Origin: Silurus meridionalis
Taxonomy: Eukaryota > Chordata > Actinopteri > Siluriformes > Siluridae
Direction: 5' to 3'
Length of the DNA: 64,000 nt
Assembly (NCBI RefSeq): GCF_014805685.1
Contig: NC_060887.1
Coordinates: 30,225,963 to 30,289,962, forward strand
Shown: in pieces, positions 5,975 through 34,386 of the stretch
How the letters are laid out: each line of letters begins with the position of its first letter
Numbering within the stretch: the first letter of the stretch is position 1
Made by a program: the position numbers and the translations under genes
Notes under the pieces: generated by a model
What the model saw: only the letters and a program-made list of their open reading frames with translations
The model's database searches: none
What the model was told of the DNA's origin: nothing

Positions 5975-6490
5975 TTAATGGCAACTACAGTCCAAATCCA
6001 GCCTTAGAGTTCTTGGCTTTCTTAGTAACTTCATGGATCTTTAATCTGTTCATGTGGAACCATCCCCAGATTCACTGAGTGGTCTTCAATTAAAGAGAGC
6101 CCCATCCAGGGATGTCAGGATGAATCAGGTGGACCTCAGACTAAGAAAGGGAAAGGATCCTTGCTCAGTGGTACTATAGGAGCATGTTTAACTTAACAGA
6201 GAGGGAGAGTTTGTAGGTGTATAAATTAAAATACCGAACCTTAAAGTCTAAATGCAAATGCAAGTCTATAATGTGCATGCCCATTTTCCATTCAGCTGAA
6301 TTTTATTTGTATAGTGCACATAATATTGGATATTACTACAAGGCAGCTTTACAGAAATTTGGGCATCACCCCAAAATTCCTAAGAAACAAACTTAACAGG
6401 CAAAAAACATCCTCTTCAAGGTGACACCAGGTTGTAAGATTAAAAATGATTGCCGTTCTGAAGATACTACCTACTACTAACATTATCACA
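5975..6490 (-). mobile_element. degenerate LINE (L2-like) 3' region
   Basis: The part 6190-6485 is clearly duplicated at 11318-11817, with shared runs such as GATTGCCGTTCTGAAGATAC. In reverse it resembles L2 3' ends (AGCTGCCTTGTAG, then a tail near ATTCAGCTGAAT). The part before 6190 is assigned by continuity only. Confidence 0.5.
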
Positions 6491-7059
6491 TGCTATGGAC
6501 AATGATTTCAACATTTTTTTACTGTAATAATAAAAGAAATCGTTATGTAATGGTGCAGTAAATGTTGAAAATGTTCAATTGTCACTTTTTGGGCGTTTTG
6601 TTGTTTCAACAACGTTAATGTTTTTATTCTTCAGTACAGGAAAAAGTAGACACGAGATTCTGGTCAGTGGTAATTGCTGCAATGCCTTCAGATGTGATAG
6701 AGTTTTAAAATGGATAGCATTATTCTTTTAATATTGTTGTGAAGCGAGAGTGGTTAGATCAGAACGTGCCTTTTGCTGACAATCCAAACGAGAATACAAA
6801 AGTATAGCCAGAAATCAGCAGACCTGAAGGAAGGAAGTTCAAAAATACTCAGAAGGCTTTATCTGAGTGAGCTGGTAGATGTAGGTGAGTGGGGGTAATA
6901 TTCTGTAATCTGTACTGGATTTAAGTGTGTCTTTGTAATGTTCAGGTGAAGGCATGGTTCCTGGATTGGAATTCGATTTGAATGAGGATTTGATGCAAAC
7001 AAAAGATTGTGCTCAACGTTAATTCATCTTGCTTTAGAAGCCTGAAGTTGTGACATAGA

Positions 7060-7560
7060 GGTGTGAAAAGGCACCTTTTGGATTTCACTCCATGTGGAGT
7101 TTTGGACATTGGACCTCTTTAAATGTTTGAAGGCTCTGTCATGGAGAAGCTGGTGTTCTATGATCTATGATGATCTGAAATGTTGAGCTATTTTATGAGT
7201 TGCTTAGTAGATCCTGGTTCCAAAACTTCAACTGACTGTATAAGACTGTAGAAAGGATATTACTCACAATCGTACACTCCGGTGCTCATGTTAGTTTTCA
7301 CTCTCCAGTGTTTTGTATTATTTTAGGATTTATGATCACACTCTTGATGTCACCCAAATGAGGATGGGTTCCCCTTTTGAGTCTGGTTCCTCTCAAGGTT
7401 TCTTCCTCATAACATCTAAGGGAGTTTTTCTCGCCACAGTCGCCATGGCTGCTCATCAGGGATAAATACACATCGTTCACCTTAACTGTTAAATTCTGTA
7501 AAGCTGCTTTGAGACAATGTCTGTTGTGAAAAGTGCTATAGAAATAAACTTGACTTGACT
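7060..7560 (+). mobile_element. L2-type LINE, 3' end
   Basis: About 500 bp of L2 3' UTR ending in AAACTTGACTTGACT. The earlier part (7060-7290) matches in reverse the 27360-27560 part of the larger copy, for example GTTTTGGACATTGGACCTC. Non-coding. Confidence 0.75.
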
Positions 7561-11164: not shown

Positions 11165-11830
11165 ACTTTTTTTTGTATTGCACTTTTAATAATAGAAATT
11201 GTCTCAAAATAGCTGTACAGAAATAAATAGGAATATGAATTCTACATTCATAAATTTGTCCCTATAAGTTTATCCCTAATAAGTAAACAAGTGGCGACTG
11301 TGGCAAGGAAACAGTCCCTGAGAGGGAGAGTGTGTAGTTGTATAAATTAAAATACCAAACCTTAAAGTCTTAATGCAAATCTAAAATGTACCCCATTTTA
11401 TTTTCTACTTTCACACCATATATGGTTTTCACACTGCTTTACCTCACTTCCTGTGTTGTCCACAAAACATATAACACATTTGTTATCCAGTCTTTTCATC
11501 TTGTTATTAATTATATACCTCTATCTGCATCTGTCTTTGGGAATCAGCATGTAGGGGTGGTCAATGAGATGATTTGGACTAAAACAAAATATACTGTCTA
11601 TTAAAAGCATGCTCGTTTTCCATTCAGCTGAATTTTATTTGTATAGTGCACATAATATTGGATATTACTACACGGCAGCTTTACAGAAATTTGGGCAAAT
11701 CTCTAAATTCCTTATAAACAAACTTAACAGGCAAAACATCCTCCTCAAGGTGACACCAGGTTGTAAGTTAAAAAATGATTGCCGTTCTGAAGATACAACA
11801 TTATCACATGCTTTGAAAAGAGGTTTACCA
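11165..11830 (-). mobile_element. degenerate L2-like LINE 3' region, with extra internal segment
   Basis: 11195-11330 carries an L2 3' block in reverse (TGGCGACTGTGGCAAGGAAA). 11318-11388 plus 11607-11817 match 6190-6485. The 11389-11606 segment is absent from the other copy, so it is either an insertion here or a deletion there. Confidence 0.5.
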
Positions 11831-12260: not shown

Positions 12261-12906
12261 GAGCTCTGCTCTCAAAGACTGTATTGTAAAAACTGGATTT
12301 CCTCCACAGTTAAAATTCTATTAATAACCTTAAGAACACTATCTTAATAGAGGCAGAAAAGCACAGGGCAGTTATAAATATATTCACTCTGGCTGTAACT
12401 GAAGTCTGAGGGTTTCAGTTACCTTAGAACAGATCACTGCTGGCTTCTCTGCTGTTACAATATATGTACCTATATTCTGTCATATACTAAGGGATTGTAA
12501 AATTGGGTTGGGAGATTTAATTTAATTTAATAAACCTGTGTTCCACTGTTGACTGTTGGGAGCTAATGGGAGGTTATCTGGGAAGTTTTTGTTCTGTGGG
12601 TCTCAGAATGTACATTGGTTGTTCCTCGACCAGGCCTTTTAAAGTACTTTAAATGAGATCTGCCTTGTGCCACTGAACAAACACTTTGTTTCATTTACCT
12701 TAAATAAAAGAGGTCAGTAGCTATAAACATTAATAATATCAAAAGAATTACCCAGACTGCCTTCCTCATCACTTCCTTTCCCCCCATTCATTTCAAGTTC
12801 ATCCGGGTAGCATGTTTCATGGCCATCGTCATTGTTTGGCTTTGGCGTGTAACCAGATGACTCAGACTTTGACTAATCTTCTGTTCTACTCTCTTTATTC
12901 TCTAAG

Positions 12907-13829
12907 GTATTGGCAAGAATGTCATCTGCGACCGCACAGCCACACCGCTAGACGCCTTCCGTATGATGTCAGCAGCACAGTACTACCCCAAGCTGCTGAG
13001 CATTATGGGTAATGTTCTGCGCTTTCTTCCGGCATTTGTGCGCATGAAGGAGCTGTTAGAGGAGGGTTATGTGGGAGAGGTGCTGGTCTGCGAGGCACAG
13101 GTCCACGGTGGAAGTCTTTTGGGCAAGAAGTACAACTGGAGCTGTGACGACTTGATGGGCGGTGGAGGACTTCATTCTGTGGGCAGCTACATCATCGACC
13201 TGCTCACGTTCCTGACCAGCCAGCGTGCCGTCAAGGTGCATGGCTTCCTAAAGACGTTCATTAAACAGACAGACCACATCAAGGGCATCAGACAGATCAC
13301 CAGTGATGACTTTTGCACTTTTCAGATGGTGTTGGAGGGTGGAGCGTGCTGCACAGTTACGCTCAACTTTAATGTGCCGGGGGAGTTCCGGCAGGAGGTC
13401 GTTGTGGTTGGTACAGCCGGACGACTCACAGTGAGTGGCACTGACTTGTACGGACAAAAGAACAGTGGTATGGGAGGTCGTGAGCTACTGCTCAAAGACA
13501 GCACACCTTTAGACAATGCCTCGCTGCCTGATAAGGCCTTTAGCGACATCCCCACGCCCTACCTCACTGGCACCATCTACATGGTCCAGGCTATACGACA
13601 GGCCTTCCAGGGCCAGGACGATCGGCGGACTTGGGACGGACGGCCGCTTACCATGGCCGCCACTTTCGAAGACTGTTTGTATGCTTTGTGTGTGGTGGAC
13701 ACAATCAAGAAATCCAACCAGTGTGGTGAATGGCAGAACATCGTAGTAATGACGGAAGAACCTGAGATCAGTCCAGCCTATCTGATAAGTGAGGCCATGC
13801 GACGCAGCAGGATGTCACTGTACTGCTAG
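12907..13829 (+). CDS. gfod1: gfod1 terminal exon: glucose-fructose oxidoreductase domain-containing protein 1 (C-terminal ~307 residues)
   Basis: Seen: an AG acceptor at 12905-12906 opens a reading frame whose first codon is split (G|GT, Gly). It runs 306 full codons to TAG at 13827-13829 and ends RRSRMSLYC. Translation starts [20 protein letters not shown] and includes [35 protein letters not shown] and [20 protein letters not shown]. From memory these match vertebrate GFOD1 closely; the paralogue GFOD2 differs at many of these places (for example its C-terminus lacks MSLYC). Human GFOD1 is about 390 residues, so this exon supplies roughly residues 85-390. Family: GFO/IDH/MocA oxidoreductase fold, with the NAD(P)-binding Rossmann half mostly in the missing exon and the alpha/beta C-terminal domain here. 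The usual EKP catalytic motif of the family is replaced by DRT (in CDRTAT), so ordinary dehydrogenase activity is doubtful. No frameshift or premature stop. A Met at 12963 is internal, not the start. Confidence 0.96.
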
Positions 13830-25577: not shown

Positions 25578-25775
25578 GAAAGGTACTTTATATTGTCACA
25601 TGTACTTTACAGTACAGTCAATTACAGTACAATTCTTCCTTTGAATACACCGAAGCTGGGGCCAGAGCGCAGGGTGAGCCATGATACAGCACCTTTGGAG
25701 CACAGAGGCTTAAACCCCAACCTTTCAATCAGTAACCCAGAGCCTTAACCACTGAGCTACCACCTTCCCAAAGTG
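25578..25775 (-). mobile_element. dispersed SINE-like repeat
   Basis: The part around 25665-25712 matches in reverse 50470-50515 (GAGCGCAGGGT, CATGATACAGC, GGAGCACAGAGG). It crosses the left boundary of the 1.4-kb direct repeat without a break, showing that the left junction is the ancestral one. Confidence 0.55.
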
Positions 25776-27086
25776 ACCATTTTCATTAAAAGCGGGCGAA
25801 CATGAGAAACAGCAACCACGAGTGGCAACTTTGTCCAGAGATTTGACAAAGAACAGTTTAACTTTATGAAAGTATGGAGCTGCTTGGTGCACTGACTGCT
25901 AATGTATTTGTGGAAAGTGGAAGATTATGCCGCCTACTGACAAAACTTACTATGGCAACCAGTAGTACGAATGCCCACAGATGACTTCATGGTAAAGTGA
26001 CTGGAAACTTTGGTAATAAACATTACACATTTAGAAAGTAATAAATTACAAATGCATTTATCACCTCTGGTACAAGGTTTCAAGCTTATGTTGACAAAAA
26101 TGAACATACAGTGTAGGTCAGATGTGAGATGTTGGAGCATTTGTGTTGTACAGACTGAACATGTAACAAACAGGCTTCAGTACACAGCTCAAATTACCAT
26201 CCAAATGCTTCCCAGAGGCCTTTCTGCAACACTATCTGTAAATGAAAGATGGAACATTTGTGAAAGATGATATCAATATTTTTTATCATTAGGATGTCAA
26301 TGCTTAGGCTTCTCCAAAATCTTGACAAAAAAGTTTTCCATGTGATCTTGTAGATGCATTTCATACTTATTTTCCATGTGTAAATCAAAAGTCAAGACTC
26401 AATCTGGAGCCTGGTGATGTTTTAGTATCTTCAGACTGTGCCTTTAACATGATATACTACTTACTCTTTTTGGCTCTTTTTCATGGACAGAGATTAAGTG
26501 CAGTCACTAAATAAATAATACCCCAACACGGATGCTCCAATAAAAAGACTTCTGGAGTAGGGTGTGGATTCATGTCCAAAAAGCAGCAGCCCAAGGTGTC
26601 CTTGAAATCTTTAACAGCATATTACACTGACAGATCTCTTTTTCAGGAGAGCTTAGAATCAAACCTTTTTGTCCTTAAATGACCCTACTGATCTATTTTT
26701 TCCTATTATCCTCAAAGTCTTCCAGGTGCAGAAGCAATTATATCTTTGCCTTGTCATGTCCCACAGGGCATCCTGCATCCTAGTCCCACCCTGTCTGTTG
26801 CTTCTGACTCACACTCTTTCCATGTCAAATCTTTTTCTGTCTCACAAAAAAAGTTCAGCCTGCCCTGTTTTTAACACATTGTATGTTAAACATGGGAAAC
26901 TCTGTATCCACTATAAATCTATTAGCTCTAAGCAGCAGCCAGCAGATGCCATATGGTGGACATTTTTCCAAGAGTTGTGTCATTTTTCCTCTGTGTTGAT
27001 ATTGTAAAAGGTGTGTTGCCAGAATAAAGCTGATGAGCATGCTTTTTGTGCCATTTGACCACTGTACAATTGGCTATTGTCTATTT
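25686..27086. repeat. 1.4-kb direct repeat, left copy
   Basis: Matches 28727-30128 at an offset of 3041-3042. Reading by eye I find one indel and about five substitutions, all in the last ~550 bp; the first ~835 bp look identical. No recognisable gene; the small frames in it are duplicated with it. Confidence 0.97.
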
Positions 27087-28726
27087 CAAGTCAAGTCAAG
27101 TCAAGTTTATTTGTATAGCGCTTTTCACAACAGACATTGTCTCAAAGCAGCTTTACACAAATCAACAGTGATGGTGAATGGTGTGCATTTGTCCCTGATG
27201 AGCAAGCCGTGGCGACTGTGGCAAGGAAAAACTCCCTTAGATGTTATGAGGAAGAAACCTTGAGAGGAACCAGACTCAAAAGGGGAACCCATCCTCATCT
27301 GGGTGACATCAAGAGTTTGATCATAAATCTTTCAACAATACAGAACACTGGAGAGTGAGAACTAACATGATTACTGGAGTATAAGATTATAAGTAATGTT
27401 CTTTCTGCAGTCTTAAACAGTCTATATGGTTAGTAGCTCCGAGTTTTATAAGCTCAGCATTTGTGATCACCACAGATCCAGCATCAGCTTCTCCATGCCA
27501 GAGCCTTTAAACACTCCAGGAGGTCCAATGTCAAAACTCCACACATGTAGCGGGATCCAAATGGCACTGGTACGTCTCTAGATGGTTCAGGATGTTTGTG
27601 AGTTCGGCATCTACTTCTTTAAAGGTCCGTAATCATCACGAGGTGGGAGGTGACTGGAGCTGGAGCAACCTCAGGATGCCTCGGGATGGGGAGAGAAAGA
27701 GAAGCAGTGGAGAGGAATTAGCGTAGCTGCTGTTCATGATATTAACAGCACAAGTTGATAATGTGCATGTGATCAGATGTTCTGGAGCACAAGGTTATGA
27801 TGTGATGTGTGTTATGTGTAGGCTTTGCTAAAAGATACGTTTTAATCTACACTTAAATTGGGTGAGTGTGTCTGAGCCCCGAACACCGTCAGGAAGACTA
27901 TTCCAGAGTTTAGGAGCTAAATGTGAAAATGCTCTACCACCTTTAGTGGACTTTGCTATTCTAGGAACTACTAGAAGCCCAGAGTTTTGAGATCTCAGGG
28001 GCGTGGCGGATTGTAGCGTGTTAAAAGACTGGATAGATACAGGAGCCAAACCATTTAGTGCTTTATAAGTGAGAAGTAATAGTTTGTAGTCTATTCGAAA
28101 CTTAACAGGAAGCCAATGTAGGGACGATAAGATCGGGGTTATGTGATCATATTTTTTTGACCTTGTAAGAACTCTGGCTGCTGCATTCTGGACTAACTGA
28201 AGCTTGTTTATTAATGAAGCAGGACATCCACCTAGTAACGCATTACAGTAGTCTATTCTGGAGGTCATAAACGCATGGACGAGCTTCTCTGCATCGGATA
28301 TAGACAACATATTTCTTAGCTTAGAAATATTTCTAAGGTGAAAGAAGGCTGTTTTGTAACCTGATTGATGTGATTTTTGAAAGACAAGTCGCTGTCTAAA
28401 ATAACACCCAGGTCTTTTACCGTTGAACTAGTGGTTACAGAACATCCGTCTAAATGCAGGTTGAGATGCTGGAGCGCCTGTATACCAGTTTTGGGCCGAT
28501 GAGCAAAATCTCAGTCTTATCAGAATTTAAAAGTAGAAAGTTATGGGTCATCCAATCTCTTAGTTCCTTAACACACTCAGTCATCCGGGTTAATTGAGCT
28601 GTATCGCCTGGTTTAGATGAAATATATAGCTGAGTATCATCAGCATAACAATGGAAGCTAATTCCATGCCTTCTAATAATATTTCCTAACGGAAGCATGT
28701 ATATTGTGAAGAGCAGGGGTCCTAGA
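27087..28726 (-). mobile_element. L2-type LINE, 5'-truncated, exactly between the two direct repeats
   Basis: On the minus strand the element runs from a truncated 5' end at about 28726 to a (TTGAC)n tail at 27087-27104. Protein fragments: GAVLGPLLFTIYMLPLG and FHCYADDTQLY (the YADD reverse-transcriptase active site) at 28726-28470, then the C-terminal part LVHAFMTSRIDYCNALLGG to RLKRIF ending near 27828. Two frameshifts, near 28475 and near 28350, interrupt the frame, so it is dead. About 740 bp of 3' UTR follows and matches the copies at 7060-7560 and 528-778. Confidence 0.92.
27828..28726 (-). pseudogene. L2 reverse transcriptase, truncated and frameshifted
   Basis: Includes the palm region with YADD and the downstream C-terminal segment LLTYKALNGLAP, LRSQNSGLLVVPR, FSHLAPKLWNSLPDGVR typical of L2/CR1-type ORF2 proteins. 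The endonuclease domain and the front of the reverse transcriptase are missing. One frameshift interrupts the region after LLIGPK; another splits the NHINQVTK / AFFHLRNISKL region. Confidence 0.88.
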
Positions 28727-30128
28727 ACAGCACCTTTGGAGCACAGAGGCTTAAACCCCAACCTTTCAATCAGTAACCCAGAGCCTTAACCACTGAGCTA
28801 CCACCTTCCCAAAGTGACCATTTTCATTAAAAGCGGGCGAACATGAGAAACAGCAACCACGAGTGGCAACTTTGTCCAGAGATTTGACAAAGAACAGTTT
28901 AACTTTATGAAAGTATGGAGCTGCTTGGTGCACTGACTGCTAATGTATTTGTGGAAAGTGGAAGATTATGCCGCCTACTGACAAAACTTACTATGGCAAC
29001 CAGTAGTACGAATGCCCACAGATGACTTCATGGTAAAGTGACTGGAAACTTTGGTAATAAACATTACACATTTAGAAAGTAATAAATTACAAATGCATTT
29101 ATCACCTCTGGTACAAGGTTTCAAGCTTATGTTGACAAAAATGAACATACAGTGTAGGTCAGATGTGAGATGTTGGAGCATTTGTGTTGTACAGACTGAA
29201 CATGTAACAAACAGGCTTCAGTACACAGCTCAAATTACCATCCAAATGCTTCCCAGAGGCCTTTCTGCAACACTATCTGTAAATGAAAGATGGAACATTT
29301 GTGAAAGATGATATCAATATTTTTTATCATTAGGATGTCAATGCTTAGGCTTCTCCAAAATCTTGACAAAAAAGTTTTCCATGTGATCTTGTAGATGCAT
29401 TTCATACTTATTTTCCATGTGTAAATCAAAAGTCAAGACTCAATCTGGAGCCTGGTGATGTTTTAGTATCTTCAGACTGTGCCTTTAACATGATATACTA
29501 CTTACTCTTTTTGGCTCTTTTTCATGGACAGAGATTAAGTGCAGTCACTAAATAAATAATACCCCCAACACGGATGCTCCAATAAAAAGTCTTCTGGAGT
29601 AGGGTGTGGATTCATGTCCAAAAAGCAGCAGCCCAAGGTGTCCTTGAAATCTTTAACAGCATATTACACTGACAGATCTCTTTTTCAGGAGAGCTTAGAA
29701 TCAAACCTTTTTGTCCTTAAATGACCCTACTGATCTATTTTTTCCTATTATCCTCAAAGTCTTCCAGGTGCAGAAGCAATTATATCTTTGCCTTGTCATG
29801 TCCCACAGGGCATCCTGCATCCTAGTCCCACCCTGTCTGTTGCTTCTGACTCACACTCTTTCCATGTCAAATCTTTTTCTGTCTCACAAAAAAAGTTCAG
29901 CCTGCCCTGTTTTTAACACATTGTATGTTAAACATGGGAAACTGTGTATCCGCTATAAATCTATTAGCTCTAAGCAGCAGCCAGCAGATGCCATATGGTG
30001 GACATTTTTCCAAGAGTTGTCTCATTTTTCCTCTGTGTTGATATTGTAAAAAGTGTGTTGCCAGAATAAAGCTGATGAGCATGCTTTTTGTGCCATTTGA
30101 CCACTGTACAATTGGCTATTGTCTATTT
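28727..30128. repeat. 1.4-kb direct repeat, right copy
   Basis: Second copy of 25686-27086. It begins in the middle of the SINE-like repeat (ACAGCACCTTTGGAGCAC) immediately next to the L2 5' end and runs on into unique DNA after GTCTATTT at 30121-30128. Confidence 0.97.
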
Positions 30129-33100: not shown

Positions 33101-33800
33101 CAGAAAAAAAAGAATCTTAGAAGTTTCTGTGCTACACTTTGTTGCTTTACGTCCCATCTGAAATGATTCTGTTTCTAAAGAAGAGTGTGTATCATCTGGC
33201 TGCAGCACTAATAGTTTTAAATTGCAATTTCTTTTGGCTAGATCACTCATCGTTGTTCCTGCATCTTTTCCAGCTTTCCCCTCTGAATTATTACCTGGAA
33301 AATGTTCTACTGAACAGTGATGCACATTTATTCTTTTGCAGTGATCACACTAAACCAGACTCTGAACTCCATTTGCTCAATAAATATACATAAAGGTAGG
33401 CCAGGAAACTTTTTTTCTTGGCTGCACATTATTACATGATTTTATTTTTTAAATCCAGGCTGTAACTCAGTGATTGCCAATGCCATTCAGTGGCATTGGA
33501 TTGAAAAGCCTTCAATGGAACGTTCATATTTCATGGAGCCTTTAATTGTCTGGGGCTGTTAGCCAGTTATTTGAATTATATCAAGGCTGGAATTTGTGCT
33601 GTGTGCATTCACAGATCAGGCTTCCTGCATCAGCATATCAACACAACACATCACAATTTATTGGTGATATAAAATATACTGAATGGCTATGTCTTTTCAA
33701 AGCCACACCACTGAAAACACATGTAATATGTAGCTGCCAGTGCTTATTTGCAACGTGACTGCTTGAGTGGTGTGATTGGTTGGATGTTGGTGGTCTGTAT
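30129..33800. other. intergenic, nothing recognised except a MITE end
   Basis: AT-rich, no exon. Poly(A) at about 32198-32214. A transposon end near 32440 is listed separately. Confidence 0.55.
32320..32473. mobile_element. DNA transposon / MITE end (fragment)
   Basis: AATAGAATATGGATTTATGA, AATCATTGCATTCTGTTTTT and the end CTTTTGGAATTGTGGTTGTA match the right end of a very common teleost element whose terminus reads ACAACCCCAATTCC. Confidence 0.5.
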
Positions 33801-33805
33801 CATTT

Positions 33806-34386
33806 GTTCCCTTTCAGGAGCTCGAGCTGCGTCGAAATGCATTAGGAATGCGCACGAGTGTTCACGCTCTGAAATAATGTGTGTAATCAGTCAGAAATTG
33901 GATGCTGGTCGTCACTGTCTGAGCCCCCCTTCGAGCCTCCAGCCGAGGCACCTTTCCATCAAGACCGCTTTCTTGTTGGCCATCTGCTCTATCAAGAGAG
34001 TAGGGGACTTGCAGGCCCTTTCTGTGGCCCCCTCCTTCATGGAGTTTACCCCAGGTATGGCTAGTGCCTTCCTGTACCCCCGTACAGGTTACAGCCCCAA
34101 GGTGCCCTCGGTTGTCCCACGACCCGTAATATTACAGGCATTCTAACCTCCTCCGTTCCGGGCCCCAGACCAGGAAAAAATGAACTGTGAATGCACGCAC
34201 CGGACATCTACGTCCATGTTTTATACTTCCTGGTCGTGACGTCACCCTGCCAGTGACGGCCAGCATCCAATTTTTGACTGATTACACACATTATTTCAGA
34301 GTGTGAACAATCCGGGACGTTCCCAAAGTGTGTCGACTCAGCATCTCGTTCCCTCAGGGAACTAGGGTTACATACGTAACCTAGAG
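33806..34386 (+). mobile_element. DIRS-like element, internally deleted
   Basis: Left (33806-33918) and right (34249-34362, extending to 34386) ends are inverted repeats of about 110 bp, strongest over CTCTGAAATAATGTGTGTAA and the adjoining bases. Between them a + strand frame at about 33940-34146 reads KTAFLLAICSIKRVGDLQAL and on to TGYSPKVPSVVPRPVILQAF, resembling the tyrosine-recombinase region of DIRS1-type retrotransposons. The outer right end carries the GTTCCCTCAGGGAAC motif. Reverse transcriptase is absent. Confidence 0.65.

What the first reader, a model, noticed from the sequence alone, without database searches (positions are those of the whole stretch)
25686..30128. L2 LINE flanked by 1.4-kb direct repeats: very long target-site duplication or insertion-coupled duplication
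The order is ancestral DNA, D (25686-27086), L2 in reverse (27087-28726), D again (28727-30128), then ancestral DNA. The L2 tail abuts the end of left D exactly and its truncated 5' end abuts the start of right D exactly. At the left edge a SINE-like repeat runs unbroken into D; at the right copy that repeat is cut at the L2 junction, with short shared sequence (about ACAGCACC) between L2 and D. LINE insertions normally make duplications of roughly 10-20 bp. Target-primed insertion with nicks 1.4 kb apart gives exactly this layout; a tandem duplication with L2 landing at the joint would need a coincidence. A false duplication in the assembly must also be considered, although L2 between the copies makes that less likely.
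Basis: partly seen in the sequence, partly recalled or inferred. Interest (0 to 1): 0.75.

Follow-up and report, generated by a model that had tools for sequence, protein, structure and literature searches.

The report
Jumping gene with 1.4-kb flanking duplicates
In a catfish-like genome a truncated retrotransposon sits between two nearly identical 1.4-kb copies of the DNA it landed in, most likely because the insertion itself duplicated its target; such kilobase-long target duplications are rare but have been seen in cell-culture experiments with a zebrafish LINE of similar type.

Summary
D (25686-27086) and D' (28727-30128) are direct repeats of 1401 and 1402 bp that differ by 5 substitutions and one indel. 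They abut both ends of a 5'-truncated L2-type LINE on the minus strand (27087-28726). A second copy of the left-flank repeat aligns straight across D's left edge, so that edge is ancestral and the L2/D' joint is new. Best reading: one target-primed insertion whose two target strands were cut or joined 1.4 kb apart, a very long target-site duplication.

This is rare but not new: 1 of 25 ZfL2-2 insertions in wild-type DT40 cells had a 1228-bp duplication (PMC2666801), and human L1 often makes kilobase ones in NER-deficient cells (PMC5223499). Two loose ends: all six D differences lie in its last 568 bp, and the LINE has several frame lesions that may be assembly errors. Reads, empty allele and sister species were not seen; the own-genome search failed 15 of 15 times.

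The parts
25600..25713 (+). left-flank dispersed (SINE-like) repeat that continues across the left edge of D
   Evidence: second copy at 50574-50459 (-) aligns without a break at 25686
25686..27086 (+). D, left copy of the duplicated target (1401 bp)
27087..28726 (-). 5'-truncated L2-type LINE: (TCAAG)n tail at the left, truncated in the RT motif at the right
   Evidence: RVT_1 hit E 1.3e-12 in the ORF 28453-28785; 3935 related proteins for the stretch 27831-28427, best 120 listed, mostly fish where named; ACTTG tail shared with copies at 526-778 and 7074-7560
27087..27106 (-). 3' tail repeat of the LINE; first-strand nick inferred at 27086/27087
   Evidence: sequence; same unit at 745-778
28726..28730 (.). 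5' junction, probable 2-4 base microhomology (AC to ACAG)
28727..30128 (+). D', right copy of the duplicated target (1402 bp)

Best explanation
A single retrotransposition event. L2-type LINE machinery nicked the + strand at 27086/27087 and copied LINE RNA from that 3' end (inferred from the tail position). Reverse transcription stopped in the RT-coding part. The cDNA end was joined, through about 2-4 matching bases, to the - strand end of a second cut 1401 bp to the left, and fill-in of the two long 3' single strands duplicated D. Shown: exact edges, tail position, 5' truncation, ancestral left edge, 99.6% identity of the copies. Inferred: the nicks, the order of steps, and that the cDNA met the same chromatid rather than its sister.
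For: LINE ends coincide with D edges to the base. Left edge of D is ancestral. The tail is at the edge that target-primed reverse transcription predicts for this orientation. Short 5' microhomology is likely; Suzuki et al. give 5' microhomology for about half of the ZfL2-2 copies in zebrafish. Precedents: 1228-bp duplication in 1 of 25 wild-type ZfL2-2 insertions; human L1, median 1495 bp in NER-deficient cells, up to 1.6 kb in a complemented line.
Against: No empty allele or outgroup seen; right edge not testable here. The six D/D' differences are not spread evenly: none in the first 834 bp (chance 0.004 for that end, 0.03 for any gap that long, judged after the fact), which a simple clock does not predict. 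The LINE has at least four frame changes although D/D' look young; a working source would have none, so either the assembly dropped bases or a defective RNA was moved in trans. In the precedent 24 of 25 insertions were short, so the event is rare.
Confidence: 0.72

Rival explanations
1. Two steps: a longer LINE first inserted at the right end of D with an ordinary short duplication; later a break or template switch joined the inside of that LINE, by a few matching bases, to the start of D on an allele without the LINE. The product is the same D-L2-D' order.
For: Gives the same edges; the uneven D/D' differences and 0.36% divergence would fit two different alleles of D.
Against: Needs a second rare event within 1.4 kb; nothing in the sequence asks for it.
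Confidence: 0.1
2. Assembly artefact: one D per real chromosome, with two haplotypes or reads strung together.
For: 0.4% difference between copies is also what two alleles could show; frame lesions hint at imperfect base calls in the LINE.
Against: Both false joints would have to fall exactly on the LINE's tail and its truncation point; the match at the L2/D' joint is only a few bases, short for an assembler overlap; no N.
Confidence: 0.1
3. Older tandem duplication of D, with the LINE landing later exactly in the joint.
For: Tandem duplications are common (general knowledge).
Against: The LINE would have to hit a few positions of about 2800 (my arithmetic, about 0.2% or less).
Confidence: 0.04
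4. D and D' are long terminal repeats of another element.
For: Direct repeats of 1.4 kb around an interior.
Against: D starts ACAG and ends ATTT, not TG...CA; the 12 bases on either side of the whole unit show no short duplication; another dispersed repeat crosses D's left edge; the interior is a LINE in reverse.
Confidence: 0.01

Closest known systems
Zebrafish ZfL2-2 insertion with 1228-bp long target-site duplication in wild-type chicken DT40 cells (Suzuki et al. 2009, PMC2666801)
   Same: L2-type LINE (our element's clade name is recalled), duplication over 1 kb, cells with normal end joining; most insertions there are 5'-truncated
   Different: Cell culture, engineered element, fresh event; here an insertion in a genome assembly, 1401 bp
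[quoted passage not shown]
   Same: Direct copies of kilobase length on both sides of a LINE; the authors propose a distant second nick
   Different: L1 with polyA tail, mutant cells; TSDs over 100 bp never above 10% in HeLa, as they summarise
L1-associated tandem duplication in cancer (PMC7058536)
   Same: One LINE insertion at the joint of a direct duplication; model of cDNA joining a break on the sister chromatid
   Different: 22.6 Mb, somatic
R9 of bdelloid rotifers, 'exceptionally long target site duplication' (only the title seen, in a reference list; size recalled as about 126 bp)
   Same: Non-LTR element with long duplication
   Different: rDNA-specific by its title, much shorter if the recalled size is right

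Membership tests
Long target-site duplication (L-TSD, >20 bp) at a LINE insertion | Direct repeats abut both ends of the element exactly | tested here: met
Long target-site duplication (L-TSD, >20 bp) at a LINE insertion | Outer flank and D are continuous as in the ancestor on both sides | tested here: inconclusive
   left edge met; right edge has no repeat to test it (best score 50 against 45-46 for 3 shuffles)
Long target-site duplication (L-TSD, >20 bp) at a LINE insertion | Empty allele with a single target copy | not tested
   no fish genome reachable; the genome search on the own genome failed 15 of 15 times
L2-type LINE | Reverse transcriptase related to fish LINE proteins | tested here: met
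   RVT_1; relatives in Silurus, Tachysurus and cyprinids
L2-type LINE | Places in the L2 clade in a tree | not tested
   the clade name is recalled; no source name in the listings says L2
L2-type LINE | Short tandem repeat at the 3' end instead of polyA | tested here: met
   (ACTTG)n on the sense strand here and in two of the three other matches in the window
L2-type LINE | Apurinic-type endonuclease domain | not testable with these tools
   copy is truncated within the RT, the upstream part is absent
LTR retrotransposon | TG...CA ends and a 4-6 bp duplication around the unit | tested here: not met

The most novel reading that the evidence does not exclude
The duplication was made not by two distant nicks but by the LINE cDNA invading or template-switching onto the sister chromatid (or homologue) 1.4 kb upstream, i.e. 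a LINE insertion coupled to break-induced replication, leaving a germline segmental duplication and, in its last 568 bp, a cluster of changes from error-prone copying or allele mixing.
Probability: 0.2. Interest if true: 0.55.

Novelty: new member of a known kind. Interest (0 to 1): 0.3.

Why it matters
It is a candidate natural, germline example of what was seen once among 25 wild-type ZfL2-2 insertions in culture, and it suggests that a LINE can make a kilobase-scale segmental duplication in one step. Scanning fish genomes for near-identical direct repeats that abut a LINE's tail and its truncation point would tell how often LINEs seed segmental duplications.

Tried and rejected
LTR reading: rejected by end sequence, lack of a flanking duplication and the repeat that crosses D's left edge. 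Long microhomology at the 5' joint: set aside in favour of 2-4 bases; caution: the 116 readable relatives are the top of a search whose query carried PQGS, and few are named catfish proteins. Dating the LINE from its own decay: not possible, because its frame lesions, read by eye, are mostly losses in short homopolymers without stops in the aligned pieces, so they do not behave as a clock; there are 2 five-base homopolymers in the LINE against 6.9 expected from the window (P 0.03). Right-edge continuity by repeats: no usable repeat. LINE relatives in viral contigs: 6 pattern matches, none confirmed. Rfam at gathering scores and ARAGORN: nothing. Eight paper searches ran; only held fish terms. 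I noticed no natural kilobase duplication at a fish LINE in the listings, but most listed papers were not opened and subscription papers are not held, so this is no claim of absence.

Full report
What was checked. No base is shared beyond either edge. Between them lies a minus-strand LINE, 27087-28726. Among direct repeats of at least 100 bp and 80% identity in a BLAST self-comparison there are three pairs; D/D' is 1402 bp, the others 233 and 234 bp.

What the interior is. The ORF 28453-28785 (-) matches Pfam RVT_1 (E 1.3e-12). The 199-aa stretch 27831-28427 (-) has 3935 relatives at E<=0.001 of 4147 candidates, 120 of them listed; the top hit is from Leuciscus waleckii, and most of the named ones are from Silurus, with Tachysurus and cyprinid or loach fishes. 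The same 199-aa stretch has no Pfam match. The 3' end is a tandem ACTTG tail, as in two of the three other matches in the window, at 526-778 and 7074-7560; the third, 157 bp at 67.5% identity near 11168-11323, shows no such tail in the stretch printed. The name L2 is recalled from the family's usual look; no tree was built. The copy is truncated inside the reverse transcriptase, so no endonuclease part is present. The host is a siluriform catfish by inference: the GFOD1 reading frame 12909-13826 is 97% identical over 306 aa to a Hemibagrus guttatus protein, the best of 382 hits.

Which joint is new. A repeat in the left flank has a second copy at 50574-50459 (-), and the two align from 25600 to 25713, straight over D's left edge at 25686 (score 94; six shuffled queries reached 33 to 49). 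So flank-D on the left is the old order and L2-D' is the new joint. On the right side no repeat could test this (best score 50, three shuffles 45 to 46); there the LINE's own tail marks the joint.

The 5' joint. The joined sequence would give ...Lys-Gly-Ala-Val-Leu-Gly-Pro. Of 120 relatives examined (P0005 and P0241-P0359, the listed top of 791 hits), 116 have a PQG motif; 114 have Ser next, one Cys, one Phe, none Ala. Among the first listing of 120, five have PQG: four with Ser, and one (P0116) with Thr that runs on into another part of the protein, so it is probably not this motif. The query itself carried PQGS, which may favour Ser.

Mechanism. With the LINE on the minus strand, the + strand end at 27086 is the primer for reverse transcription, and D lies upstream of it. 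A second cut on the - strand at the left edge of D gives two 1.4-kb 3' single strands; the cDNA end pairs with the other 3' end by a few bases, and filling in both sides copies D. Only the end state is shown; the steps are inferred. A sister-chromatid variant (cDNA joins or copies the sister 1.4 kb upstream) gives the same end state; a similar model is given for a 22.6-Mb L1-linked duplication in cancer (PMC7058536, passages).

Precedent. Suzuki et al. 2009 (PMC2666801; abstract, sections 10 and 12 read): of 25 ZfL2-2 insertions in wild-type DT40 cells 24 had alterations of at most 20 bp and one had a 1228-bp duplication. PMC5223499 (passages): in NER-deficient human cells the text gives TSDs from 5 bp to 5.3 kb, median 1495 bp; in complemented cells 2 bp to 1.6 kb, median 14; over 100 bp in HeLa never above 10%; the authors suggest a distant second nick. 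PMC4245944 (passages) says that one HeLa data set (Gilbert et al.) had many TSDs over 20 bp while others did not. PMC2912911 (passages) says that 5'-truncated L1 copies in that data set often came with radical target changes, extremely long TSDs among them. PMC2671141 (passages): repair-made duplications in primates, largest 619 bp, not tied to a LINE insertion.

Age. Five substitutions in 1401 bp is 0.36% (95% range 0.12-0.83%). With assumed rates of 1e-8 to 2e-9 per site and year (recalled, not fitted) this is about 0.2-0.9 million years, or 0.06-2.1 with the range of the count, so the insertion may still be polymorphic.

Results that do not fit smoothly. All six D/D' differences lie at D position 835 or later; four lie within 109 bp (chance 0.02); none in the first 834 bp (0.004, or 0.03 for any gap that long), all judged after the fact. 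Gene conversion, allele mixing or chance could do this. The LINE's coding part changes frame at least four times by tblastn with 6 of the 120 relatives, and probably a fifth time by eye, without a stop in the aligned pieces; read by eye, most of these places are short homopolymers, while long stretches are near-identical to a Silurus protein. For a young insertion these lesions would come from base-calling or polishing errors in repeats, or from a defective RNA moved in trans. This does not touch the structure but warns against reading single-base differences too closely.

Verdict. A clear case in the assembly, best read as a very long target-site duplication; a new natural member of a known kind. 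Not tested: reads, empty allele, relatives, rate in the genome.

Noticed in passing
27840-28500 (-): LINE coding part has at least four frame changes, by eye mostly at short homopolymers, and no stop in the aligned pieces; five-base homopolymers are scarce in it (2 seen, 6.9 expected). Assembly polishing error or a defective source.
   Followed up: partly
25686-27086 and 28727-30128: All six differences between the D copies lie in the last 568 bp; four within 109 bp.
   Followed up: partly
12906-13829 (+): Open GFOD1 reading frame, 97% identical to a Hemibagrus guttatus protein; used to place the window in catfish.
   Followed up: yes
6264-6497 and 11596-11815: Unidentified dispersed repeat pair, 87% identical.
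   Followed up: no
33727-34146 (+): 139-aa open frame without Pfam match; nature unknown.
   Followed up: no
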